Below, piece by piece: positions 58,608 through 60,969 of a DNA stretch of 61,000 nucleotides. Below the pieces are notes generated by a model, which made no database searches, was not told where the DNA came from, and saw only the letters and a list, made by a program, of their open reading frames with translations. A program made the translations under genes and the position numbers. Each line of letters opens with the position of its first letter. The stretch's first letter is position 1. The DNA is from Flavobacteriia bacterium (GTDB lineage Bacteria; Bacteroidota; Bacteroidia; Flavobacteriales; Schleiferiaceae): assembly GCA_013373425.1 (NCBI GenBank), contig JABXHW010000007.1, forward strand, positions 67,429 to 128,428, read 5' to 3'.

Positions 58608-58626
58608 TAGTAGCGGGGGCAGGACT
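58608..58626. repeat. Left core site (copy of tRNA-fMet 3' end)
   Basis: TAGTAGCGGGGGCAGGACT, identical to 60951-60969; identity ends at the next base on both sides. No tRNA cloverleaf can be formed from the sequence to its right. Confidence 0.75.
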
Positions 58627-58708
58627 TGCCAATCGTTACCCCGATATTTTTAAATCACTGTAAGTCAGGTGGTCAACTTTTCACATTTGTTTCATTTTCA
58701 GAAACTAT

Positions 58709-58725
58709 GGGACACTAGCGGGACA
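58709..58725. repeat. Arm-type site pair P1
   Basis: GGGACA-ctagc-GGGACA: two identical hexamers with 11-bp spacing, 98 bp inside the left core. Nearly the same 17 bp recurs at 60685-60701. Confidence 0.55.
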
Positions 58726-58924
58726 GTTAATAGACTTGTAATTATCATTATATCAGTGAGTAAGTATCGTTATTTAGAATTGGTAAACAGAATGCAGTGA
58801 ATCAGTATCAAATAACTGATAATGAGTTCTACTGACTTGAATTTGCTGTAACAATGTAACATTATTGACTTAATCAGCACTCGCCTAATGAGCTACGTGT
58901 TACAAAAGAGTTTGGAACTTGAGA

Positions 58925-60598
58925 CTATTGTTTCAGCGTTGTTGATTCATTCGAAACTAGAACCTGTTTGATTCCATCAAGAATATCTTCGGGGTACGGC
59001 TGATCACCAAAATTCTTTGACACGTAATTACTAAATGGATCGACGAAACCCTTCCCTCTTGCCGCTTGTTTTATTACGTCTACCAAATGCTTAGGTTTTT
59101 CTTTAATTCTTGAACGCAAACGGTCTAAATCTTCTATACTCATGGTGGTCAAACGAAGGACGTTAAGCTTCTTGTCCTTCTCAATATTCTCTAACTTCTT
59201 GTTGAATTCGGATGACAAGATGTGAGGGAATAGTAGACTGGAGAATAAGTTATCCATGAAAATTAGAACAGGATAGATGTGGATGGACTTTTTAGAATTT
59301 AATCGCGGGTCGAAATTCTCATGTAACTCTTTAAACCTAGACACCCTTTCGACCAACTGATTTACACCAATTCTATCGAGGAATTTTTCTTCATTTTCTC
59401 CATACAGTGCCTCCATGCTCATACCTACTTTCGAGTCATCATTTAATAGTGTTGATTTGACCTCAAATAAGAAAATATGATTACCAACTCTTAGATAAGC
59501 ATCGCAAAACTCATATTGTTCTCCTCCTATTTTAAATGTAAGTTTCTCAGAGTTGAGAAAGAGACAATGCTTTATCTGAGCTGTTAGAAGTTTCAATTTA
59601 CTAACGACTAATTGCTCAAACCATTGACCCTTCACACTCCCATACTCCTCAATTGACATTATTCCCTTCTTTTTCACGCAATCAAACCAAAAGTCATTTA
59701 AGAGTTGTGTATAAGTCTTAATCAACATTTGTGATCGATCAAGAATAATGAATCGGTCATTCTTGACTTCATGAATGGGGAACTTTTTAATACTAACAAG
59801 CTTTCTAAAGTCTCGAACTTCTACAGATCCGCTGAGACTTTTAAGGAAACTACGTGTTTCATCATCAAGTGGATATTTAATAATGCTATCCAACTCTGTA
59901 TTATCCGCATTTTCAAAACAAACTTTGATTGTATACTTAATAAGCTTCTCCGCCTCAAGACCGTACGCCGACATAACGAATTCCTGAAATACTCCTGATA
60001 AACGCGGGTGTGACGTAAGAAAACGAACTAGATCAATACTATAGGATGGAGTAAGGAATGGATCAATTACAAGGTTGGTTTGATTAAATAGAAGAATTCG
60101 CGTGTTGATGGCTTTGAACAAGCTATTTTCATGTTCAGAAATACTGGGTCCTTTTGTCACTGCTGAATTAATACACAGCAAGTACTTAAATAAATCCTCC
60201 TTGAATTCATCTGCTGCATCTGGATTAGAATCTTCAAATAGATTTTCATCCTGCCCAACAATTTCTTCGATTGCGAATAAGCAAGTAGCGCGATGGATTA
60301 TTATAAAATCAGGAATTGTGCTGCCAGCGATTGATGAAGCCAATGCTGTTTCAAAATCTCTAAAAACACCATCAGTCAGCAGATGTCCAACGACTTCTTT
60401 TTGACGATTAATTTCTCCCCAATTAAAAATATCTTCTGAAGTAAATCGCTTTAAATACGCATTAATACTGGCAATTTCTCCGATGCATAAATCTTTCGGA
60501 TATGACTTTACAAAATCTAGCCTAGGATTGTCAAGTTCGCCGAAAATCATTTCGTAATTGACAATGATTGCAGCTTTTGTAGGAGCGTTGCGAGGCAT
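58925..60598 (-). CDS. Island protein of unknown family with a candidate PD-(D/E)XK nuclease core
   Basis: 557 residues, no signal peptide or membrane segments. I do not recognise the family. The first 300 residues look mostly helical. From about 320 there is a plausible PD-(D/E)XK core: helix glutamate E328 (QWFEQLVV), D366 in CDAYLRVG, then the strand IFLFEVKS with E379 and K381, and Q414 in the following helix (GVNQLVERV). The C-terminal 130 residues include strand HIYPVLIFMD and helical charged parts. It is the only gene of the island. Lone nuclease-like genes on tRNA-linked islands are often anti-phage systems, but that is inference. TTTG-N17-TATCTTAG lies upstream. Confidence 0.6.
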   Translation of the reverse strand: MPRNAPTKAAIIVNYEMIFGELDNPRLDFVKSYPKDLCIGEIASINAYLKRFTSEDIFNWGEINRQKEVVGHLLTDGVFRDFETALASSIAGSTIPDFIIIHRATCLFAIEEIVGQDENLFEDSNPDAADEFKEDLFKYLLCINSAVTKGPSISEHENSLFKAINTRILLFNQTNLVIDPFLTPSYSIDLVRFLTSHPRLSGVFQEFVMSAYGLEAEKLIKYTIKVCFENADNTELDSIIKYPLDDETRSFLKSLSGSVEVRDFRKLVSIKKFPIHEVKNDRFIILDRSQMLIKTYTQLLNDFWFDCVKKKGIMSIEEYGSVKGQWFEQLVVSKLKLLTAQIKHCLFLNSEKLTFKIGGEQYEFCDAYLRVGNHIFLFEVKSTLLNDDSKVGMSMEALYGENEEKFLDRIGVNQLVERVSRFKELHENFDPRLNSKKSIHIYPVLIFMDNLFSSLLFPHILSSEFNKKLENIEKDKKLNVLRLTTMSIEDLDRLRSRIKEKPKHLVDVIKQAARGKGFVDPFSNYVSKNFGDQPYPEDILDGIKQVLVSNESTTLKQ

Positions 60599-60603
60599 AA
60601 CTT

Positions 60604-60632
60604 CTAAGATATTGCATTATTAACCAATCAAA
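60604..60632 (-). promoter_or_regulatory. Candidate promoter of the island gene
   Basis: On the minus strand TTTG (60629-60632), 17 bp, TATCTTAG (60604-60611; one mismatch to TAnnTTTG), 5 nt before the ATG at 60598. Confidence 0.35.
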
Positions 60633-60684
60633 GTTGAACAAAGAAAAAACTTACATAGGTTATTCTCTGCTCAAACATTTATGT

Positions 60685-60701
60685 GGGACACTAATGGGAC
60701 A
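60685..60701. repeat. Arm-type site pair P2
   Basis: GGGACA-ctaat-GGGACA, 11-bp spacing. Differs from P1 only in two spacer bases. It lies 73 bp left of the degraded core-like sequence at 60758. Confidence 0.55.
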
Positions 60702-60706
60702 GCTAG

Positions 60707-60730
60707 AAAAAACATAGCTCAAACCGAGCT
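60707..60730 (-). terminator. Weak hairpin of the inner end unit
   Basis: AGCTC-aaacc-GAGCT (60716-60730) with a T run on the minus strand (60707-60712), in the same place relative to P2 as the strong terminator is to P3. Confidence 0.3.
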
Positions 60731-60757
60731 GAATATGAGTTAATTAAGCAAATATCG

Positions 60758-60768
60758 TAGCGGGGACT
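60758..60768. repeat. Degraded core-like sequence
   Basis: TAGCGGGGACT, matching the first 8 bases of the tRNA 3' end TAGCGGGG and then diverging. It lies exactly 196 bp left of the intact copy (60954). Confidence 0.4.
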
Positions 60769-60821
60769 AAGATCGAGGCCACACCTCTTTTATGCTCGGA
60801 ATCAAGAAGTTACCAAATTAA

Positions 60822-60860
60822 TGATAATCAAATTGACAAATTGTTGATAGCTGATTATCA
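60822..60860. repeat. 9-bp inverted repeat near the right end
   Basis: TGATAATCA (60822-60830) and TGATTATCA (60852-60860), exact reverse complements 21 bp apart. TGATAATGA occurs near the left end (about 58817-58825). Confidence 0.5.
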
Positions 60861-60880
60861 GTAGCTTACAAAGATACTCT

Positions 60881-60897
60881 GGGACAAATTCTGGACA
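60881..60897. repeat. Arm-type site pair P3
   Basis: GGGACA-aattc-TGGACA, 11-bp spacing, 73 bp left of the intact tRNA 3' end. Confidence 0.5.
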
Positions 60898-60902
60898 GTT
60901 CC

Positions 60903-60941
60903 AAAAAAATAACCCTCTAACTGATTGGCAATTAGAGGGTT
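60903..60941 (-). terminator. Terminator of the tRNA-fMet gene, supplied by the island
   Basis: Perfect 10-bp hairpin AACCCTCTAA-N11-TTAGAGGGTT (60911-60941) with TATTTTTTT after it on the minus strand, 12 bp beyond the tRNA 3' end. It lies on the island side of the core. Confidence 0.8.
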
Positions 60942-60950
60942 ACATCGATT

Positions 60951-60969
60951 TAGTAGCGGGGGCAGGACT
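60951..60969. repeat. Right core site (tRNA-fMet 3' end)
   Basis: TAGTAGCGGGGGCAGGACT, identical to 58608-58626; bases 60954-60969 belong to the tRNA gene. Confidence 0.75.

What the first reader, a model, noticed from the sequence alone, without database searches (positions are those of the whole stretch)
58608..60969. A 2.3-kb island with no integrase, inserted at the 3' end of the initiator tRNA gene
A 19-bp exact copy of the tRNA-fMet 3' end (TAGTAGCGGGGGCAGGACT) lies at 58608 and again within the gene at 60951. Between them is A+T-rich DNA with one 557-aa gene and no recombinase. tRNA 3' duplications of this type are made by tyrosine recombinases (established). A fully integrase-free single-gene element is unusual and suggests mobilisation in trans by a relative, or a degraded element that kept its cargo.
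Basis: partly seen in the sequence, partly recalled or inferred. Interest (0 to 1): 0.85.

Follow-up and report, generated by a model that had tools for sequence, protein, structure and literature searches.

The report
Integrase-less gene island at initiator tRNA
A 2.3-kb piece of foreign DNA carrying one probable nuclease gene, perhaps a virus-defence gene, sits exactly at the end of a bacterium's start-tRNA gene; it has the landing sites of a mobile element but no enzyme of its own to move it, and elements of this kind are already known.

Summary
The exact 19-bp repeat (58608, 60951) bounds A+T-rich DNA (36% G+C against 46.7%) with one 557-aa gene and no detectable recombinase trace. Seventeen of the 19 bp are the 3' end of a real initiator tRNA, completed by another contig. 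A same-genus genome has the empty site: its tRNA-fMet abuts a terminator homologous to the one left of 58608. So the left copy is the displaced original tRNA end, and the insert brought its own terminator. New: three 19-bp repeats lie in the non-coding ends, on both sides of the core as in a tyrosine-recombinase attP, and an older, decayed arm-plus-core module repeats the right end at the same 73-bp spacing. The site is a hot spot: a family member has a bounded integrase plus type I restriction island there, another a one-sided tRNA fragment with mercury-transport-type genes. The gene belongs to a rare, scattered family with conserved PD-(D/E)XK residues; some relatives sit beside an integrase or Septu genes. 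Best reading: an integrase-less tRNA island (CIME-like) with a probable antiphage nuclease. Whether the integrase was lost or acts in trans is undecided. Such elements are known.

The parts
58576..58607 (-). original transcription terminator of tRNA-fMet, now separated from the gene by the island
   Evidence: hairpin -18 kcal/mol, z -4.2; homologous to the terminator abutting tRNA-fMet in same-genus genome G002, 90% over 52 bases including the core
58608..58626 (.). left attachment core (displaced original tRNA-fMet 3' end)
   Evidence: exact 19-bp repeat; sequence departs from the tRNA right after it
58708..58726 (+). arm-like repeat 1, TGGGACACTAGCGGGACAG
   Evidence: 3 matches in 61 kb, 0.04 expected at up to 1 mismatch (pattern drawn from the sites themselves)
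58925..60598 (-). only substantial gene of the island: 557-aa protein, conserved E328, D366, E379, K381, Q414 (PD-(D/E)XK pattern); predicted nuclease, probable antiphage function
60684..60702 (+). arm-like repeat 2, TGGGACACTAATGGGACAG
60752..60770 (.). decayed core (GTAGCGGGG at 60757), 73 bases from the start of arm 2, the same spacing as arm 3 to the real core
60880..60898 (+). arm-like repeat 3, TGGGACAAATTCTGGACAG
60910..60942 (-). terminator brought by the island for the restored tRNA
   Evidence: hairpin -20.1 kcal/mol, z -7.35; inverted repeat I5
60951..60969 (.). right attachment core, 17 of 19 bp inside the restored tRNA-fMet
60953..61000 (-). 3' part of the initiator tRNA gene, continued on contig C15 of the same genome
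   Evidence: Rfam tRNA 35.1 bits; 30-base overlap with C15; ARAGORN on the joined ends

Best explanation
A small genomic island entered by tyrosine-recombinase recombination between a circular form and the T-stem/acceptor end of tRNA-fMet. Its attP carried the last 17 bases of the tRNA and a terminator, so the gene stayed functional while the original end and terminator were pushed 2.3 kb away (shown by comparison). The attP arms flank the core on both sides (inferred from three repeats). The island encodes no recombinase; the enzyme was lost earlier or supplied by another element (undecided). Its single gene encodes a predicted PD-(D/E)XK nuclease that most likely cuts nucleic acid in phage defence (inferred). 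A decayed second arm-plus-core module shows that the right end has a history of accretion or duplication older than the present insertion (inferred from divergence). In known terms it is a CIME-like, integrase-less tRNA island.
For: Exact repeat, tRNA completed by C15; empty site with homologous terminator in G002, and single cores at up to 1 mismatch in G001 and G002; composition step; arms 3 seen against 0.04 expected, none inside the gene; in 2 of 16 viral contigs holding the motif an integrase-like ORF overlaps it or lies beside it, in one of them with two motif copies (L070, L074; crude signature and by eye); GTAGCGGGG present three times in the window, at the two cores and at 60757; 0 of 200,000 shuffles of 60703-60950 put it at that offset, 2 of 20,000 have it anywhere there; no integrase trace; hot-spot relatives: G379 with integrase, hsdM and hsdR, G354 with a 3' tRNA-fMet fragment before ArsR and MerT-type genes. 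Gene: catalytic-type residues E328, D366, K381, Q414 invariant in 15 of 15 aligned proteins, E379 in at least 90%; neighbours of relatives match Septu PtuA and PtuB, PDC-S06, type I methylase and specificity models; integrases in 3 of 14 context loci.
Against: The arm function rests on repeat anatomy: the pattern was drawn from the sites themselves, so 0.04 flatters it; in the other 14 of 16 viral contigs no integrase-like ORF was seen near it by a crude signature (7 of 16 also looked at by eye), and no such pair lies in the 10-20 kb held around the five own-genome integrases. No relative of the island's DNA ends was found: in 276 order genomes the matches other than itself are 25-60 bases, and four of nine that were fetched show no integrase or arm there. 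The empty-site genome differs in gene order around the tRNA, so only tRNA and terminator align. The protein has no Pfam match, only a sub-threshold GapS1 match, and its fold could not be modelled (pLDDT 35.9). Of 10 neighbours of relatives scanned singly, 5 had no PADLOC match.
Confidence: 0.78

Rival explanations
1. Degraded remnant: a larger integrase-bearing island lost its integrase and most genes by internal deletion after insertion, and is now immobile; the decayed inner core is left from an earlier tandem element.
For: G001, same genus, has an integrase in four fragments starting about 100 bp from tRNA-fMet, showing decay at this site; decayed arm-core module; PMC7563491 describes CIMEs as decayed elements, and micro-CIMEs of 130-220 bp (passages), the size of the 196-bp module here.
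Against: No integrase trace although both cores are still identical and arms are kept on both sides. In PMC7563491 the most decayed elements lie farthest from the target gene; here the 196-bp module lies next to it.
Confidence: 0.5
2. A trans-mobilised hitcher: an attP plus one cargo gene that never needs its own integrase and uses that of a helper with the same arm and core specificity.
For: attP-like arrangement intact; the inner module is far more diverged than the outer cores, so the composite probably moved here as one unit (inference); the own genome holds an intact integrase in an 8.9-kb island at another tRNA-Met, with a core alike in 13 of 17 positions.
Against: The 20 kb around that integrase show no such arms, no helper was found, and no second copy of the island is known.
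Confidence: 0.3
3. The repeat arose by the GIY-YIG-associated duplication of tRNA-fMet 3' ends seen in other members of the family, not by a tyrosine recombinase.
For: Units of 153-377 bp ending in tRNA-fMet 3' copies in L017, L018, L027, L033, L034, L039; GIY-YIG domain in one ORF each of L033 and L034.
Against: Those units repeat each other's terminator; this island has no GIY-YIG gene, a different terminator and arm repeats.
Confidence: 0.05
4. Chance repeat or assembly artefact next to a contig end.
For: The window ends in the tRNA, and the join to C15 is a 30-base overlap.
Against: Both cores lie inside one contig; no chance match expected; terminator homology and composition agree.
Confidence: 0.03

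Closest known systems
CIME (cis-mobilizable element), as described in PMC7563491 (passages seen)
   Same: att-bounded, no integrase, cargo gene; 2.3 kb lies in the reported 1.2-13 kb range; a decayed module of micro-CIME size (196 bp against 130-220 bp)
   Different: CIMEs are defined as derived from ICEs or IMEs; no such ancestry is shown here and no tandem partner was found; the small decayed module is nearest to the target gene, not farthest
tDNA-bounded genomic island in the sense of Islander (PMC4383910, passages seen)
   Same: intact tRNA plus displaced 3' fragment in the right order and orientation; core in the T-stem/acceptor part
   Different: no integrase gene; Islander's filter rejects such candidates, so this kind is missed by it
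Integrase-bearing tRNA-fMet island of family member G379 (L054)
   Same: same tRNA, same end, defence-type cargo (type I restriction-modification)
   Different: 11.2 kb, own integrase, displaced fragment of about 44 bp reaching the anticodon, so another crossover sublocation (inference)
GapS1 (Gamma-Mobile-Trio-associated antiphage protein; original paper Mahata et al. 2024 not read, seen only as cited in passages of PMC12774648)
   Same: similarity over residues 351-514, E 3.8e-4
   Different: 19.4 bits against a cut-off of 320; first 282 profile positions unmatched; only 1 of 15 family members matches

Membership tests
tDNA-targeted genomic island | functional tRNA and a displaced 3' fragment bound the insert | tested here: met
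tDNA-targeted genomic island | empty site in a relative | tested here: met
   G002, terminator directly at tRNA-fMet; wider gene order differs
tDNA-targeted genomic island (Islander definition) | integrase gene inside | tested here: not met
CIME | att sites kept, recombination and transfer genes absent | tested here: met
   one substantial ORF, no Pfam match, no integrase trace
CIME | derivation from an ICE or IME | tested here: inconclusive
   no related larger element found by similarity of the DNA ends in 276 order genomes; ancestry not shown either way
Tyrosine-recombinase attP | arm-type repeats on both sides of the core | tested here: inconclusive
   repeats present, binding not testable; no cognate integrase found
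PD-(D/E)XK nucleases | catalytic E, D, (D/E)xK and following Q (pattern recalled) | tested here: met
   E328, D366, K381, Q414 invariant in 15 of 15, E379 at least 90%
PD-(D/E)XK nucleases | alpha-beta-beta-beta-alpha-beta core fold | tested here: inconclusive
   model unusable, pLDDT 35.9
GapS1 | NCBIfam NF047931 cut-off score | tested here: not met
   19.4 against 320 bits
Phage satellites (PICI, tycheposon and the like) | own integrase, regulators or packaging genes (recalled) | tested here: not met
   one substantial gene, no relative in phage records

The most novel reading that the evidence does not exclude
A self-contained hitchhiker reduced to an attP with three arms, a terminator and a single new type of antiphage nuclease gene, moving between genomes solely on the integrases of other elements that target Met-tRNA genes.
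Probability: 0.27. Interest if true: 0.62.

Novelty: new member of a known kind. Interest (0 to 1): 0.37.

Why it matters
At least one standard island finder (Islander) discards tRNA-bounded candidates without an integrase, so single-gene islands of this kind can be undercounted although they may carry defence genes between strains. The case is precise: ends to the base, empty site, own terminator and candidate arms, and the gene marks a rare, unnamed nuclease family, some members of which lie beside known defence systems, that can be tested directly.

Tried and rejected
Arm motif as a handle on the cognate integrase: the strict motif is in none of 394 other order genomes; 16 viral contigs have it, 2 of them with an integrase-like ORF at it (L070, L074), none seen near it in the others by a crude signature. 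Arm-plus-core pattern: 0 viral contigs; 10 genome contigs, none with a Bacteroidota name, judged chance. DNA similarity of the island ends in 276 order genomes: the nine matches other than itself are 25-60 bases; the four fetched (one of which, in G095, aligns with the arm 3 stretch at 84% over 42 bases) show no integrase and no arm at that place. Whole island against phages: none; against plasmids: 5 records, matching only the tRNA end of the query. Protein against viral contigs, genome contigs, phages and plasmids: none. Sequences of solved structures: one match, E 0.14, not meaningful. The G021 match was dropped: that locus lists no protein of the family. G541 was left out of alignment A2 because it is cut at a contig start. 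The structure model was unusable, so no fold search was run. The contig break at the tRNA was considered as evidence for a mixed filled/empty population and rejected: the 30-base overlap is conserved tRNA sequence shared by other genera. The PADLOC hit RT_UG29 among the control proteins of the window is probably a DnaG-like primase (inference, not followed up).

A comparison of arm motifs with the integrase islands at tRNA-Met (own genome) and near tRNA-fMet (G001) showed a shared TTAGTGCCGTT at their right ends but only a weak likeness to the arms here; not used.
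Full report
Observation. The 19-bp repeat is exact at 58608-58626 and 60951-60969, with no chance match expected, and occurs nowhere else in the own genome at up to 2 mismatches. The window is the end of a 128,428-base contig of a 3.09-Mb, 76-contig assembly, and it stops inside the tRNA. Contig C15 of the same genome overlaps the last 30 bases; the joined sequence gives a 74-nt tRNA-Met(CAT) on the minus strand from 61026 to 60953. Three G-C pairs in the anticodon stem mark it as the initiator (criterion recalled). So 17 of the 19 bp are tRNA. 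Between the cores the G+C is 0.360 against 0.467 left of the island, lower than any of 1126 overlapping stretches of that length there (minimum 0.435). One long ORF is present, 557 aa, minus strand; three ORFs of 70-100 aa lie antisense within it.

Insertion. In G002, of the same genus, the single tRNA-fMet core (up to 1 mismatch) directly follows a terminator; window 58576-58626 matches that terminator and core at 90% over 52 bases. Removing 58627-60969 from the window recreates this arrangement and an intact tRNA. The left copy is therefore the displaced original end with its terminator (hairpin -18.0 kcal/mol, z -4.2), and the insert supplied the present end with another terminator (-20.1 kcal/mol, z -7.35). 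Limits: gene order around the tRNA differs between the genomes; a MATE-like gene (named by eye) on the 3' side in G002 lies on the 5' side in the own genome, so long flanks cannot be aligned.

No recombinase. The own genome has 5 Phage_integrase matches, none on this contig. An integrase profile built from 6 proteins has its best hit at E 0.53 in all frames of the island, and tblastn with ten integrases or fragments gives scores like those on one shuffled control.

attP anatomy. TGGGACA-N6-GGACAG occurs three times in 61 kb, 0.04 expected at up to 1 mismatch (the pattern was drawn from the sites, so this flatters it): 58708, 60684 and 60880, all in the two non-coding ends (298 and 352 bases) and none in the gene. 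In a circular form they would lie at about +98, -269 and -73 from GTAGCGGGG of the core, all in one direction: a layout like that of arm sites of lambda-type tyrosine recombinases (recalled). From arm 2 to GTAGCGGGG at 60757 is 73 bases, the same as from arm 3 to the real core at 60953; GTAGCGGGG is found only at these two places and at 58610 in the window; 0 of 200,000 mononucleotide shuffles put it at the exact offset and 2 of 20,000 have it anywhere in the stretch. Over 131 bases in register the two modules agree at 63 positions, so the inner one is much older than the outer cores, which are still identical. Inference: the right end was doubled by accretion or duplication before the present insertion, and the composite moved as one piece. 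That the arms bind an integrase is not shown. Of 16 viral contigs with the motif, L070 and L074 have an integrase-like ORF overlapping it or beside it (two motif copies in L074); in the other 14 none was seen near it with a crude signature.

Hot spot. The fMet pattern was found in 30 of 60 family genomes, the own one counted; of these 30 loci 6 show a further core copy within the stretch held, at most 1.5 kb (L017, L018, L027, L033, L034, L039); these are short units, in L033 and L034 with ORFs of 99 aa, one of each tested and found GIY-YIG. A core search of 88 family genomes found matches in 48, two or more in 7: G000, G053, G037, G040, G354, G370, G379. G379 has a true island of 11.2 kb with an integrase next to the displaced fragment and type I restriction genes. 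In G354 a 3' tRNA-fMet fragment of about 48 bases, after a terminator-like stretch, is followed by ArsR- and MerT-type genes on a 3-kb contig; its other end is not seen. In G370 both copies are full tRNA genes. In G001, same genus, an integrase in four fragments lies near tRNA-fMet, with a DNA methylase beyond; no second core at up to 1 mismatch was found there, so its bounds are not shown. In the own genome an 8.9-kb island with an intact integrase sits at another tRNA-Met between 17-bp repeats; its integrase is 58.5% identical to the first G001 fragment over 94 residues, and its core agrees with the fMet core at 13 of 17 positions.

The gene. No Pfam match; a weak PADLOC CARF_PDDEXK match, E 0.014; NCBIfam GapS1 at E 3.8e-4 but 19.4 bits against a cut-off of 320. 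Among 15 family members Pfam gives only scattered matches, one member each, among them NERD (nuclease-related) at E 4e-4. Relatives are rare: by single sequence 4 of 99 genomes near the own one, counting itself and one match later dropped, and 4 of 395 of the class, counting itself; by a profile of 5 sequences 15 of 395 of the phylum, counting itself and the three other profile members in that set. In 15 aligned proteins E328, D366, K381 and Q414 are invariant and E379 is kept in at least 90%; G056 has Q in its place. Of 14 context loci of 5-20 kb, 3 hold an integrase by the 6-protein profile. Among 100 neighbouring proteins (up to four on each side) PADLOC models for Septu PtuA and PtuB, type I methylases and specificity subunits match (which shows 25 of 360 families and not which protein matched). 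Of 10 neighbours scanned singly, 5 matched and 5 did not: in L106 PtuA, PtuB and an HNH protein lie on one side of the gene, in L115 a PDC-S06 protein is next to it. A control of 34 proteins of the window gave 5 families, one protein each; it is not matched for genome or protein length, and PADLOC models are redundant, so the contrast is only a rough sign. No usable structure.

How it most likely works. Shown: position, empty site, restored tRNA, absence of integrase, conserved catalytic-type residues. Inferred: entry by a tyrosine recombinase acting at the T-stem/acceptor core, arms as its binding sites, cargo as an antiphage nuclease. Undecided: loss of the integrase after entry, or movement by a helper.

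What is known. PMC7563491 (passages) describes CIMEs with att sites but without their recombination genes, 1.2-13 kb with cargo, and micro-CIMEs of 130-220 bp, and calls their prevalence very high; it also finds the most decayed ones farthest from the target gene, unlike the 196-bp module here. Islander (PMC4383910, passages) defines the tRNA signature and rejects candidates without an integrase. PMC11389934 (passages) reviews elements that depend on helpers, including integrase-less cassette arrays. So the kind is known; this is a new member with clear ends, and its gene has no family name in the libraries searched. Literature searches made.

Noticed in passing
L049 4645-13597 (own genome, contig C48 about 14644-23596): An 8.9-kb island at another tRNA-Met gene between exact 17-bp repeats, with an intact integrase beside the tRNA, a DUF1353 protein, a YadA-head-repeat protein and a weak peptidase-M15 match (below cut-off).
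   Followed up: partly
L033 1500-2320; L034 1380-1800; also L017, L018, L027, L039: Units of 153-377 bp, each ending in a terminator and a copy of the tRNA-fMet 3' end, some in tandem; L033 has two and L034 one 99-aa ORF, and the one tested in each is a GIY-YIG protein. A possible separate way of duplicating tRNA ends.
   Followed up: partly
L046 15281-19789 (G001): Integrase broken into four fragments near tRNA-fMet, with a DNA methylase and an unassigned 295-aa gene beyond.
   Followed up: partly
L054 4729-15976 (G379): 11.2-kb tRNA-fMet island with integrase and type I restriction genes; its displaced tRNA fragment reaches the anticodon.
   Followed up: partly
L058 1-3050 (G354 contig C38): tRNA-fMet 3' fragment of about 48 bases followed by ArsR- and MerT-type genes on a 3-kb contig.
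   Followed up: partly
window 61000 and L117: The tRNA-fMet gene is split between two contigs with a 30-base overlap, and a MATE-like gene that lies on the 3' side of the tRNA in G002 lies on its 5' side here: a rearrangement with a breakpoint at the tRNA.
   Followed up: partly
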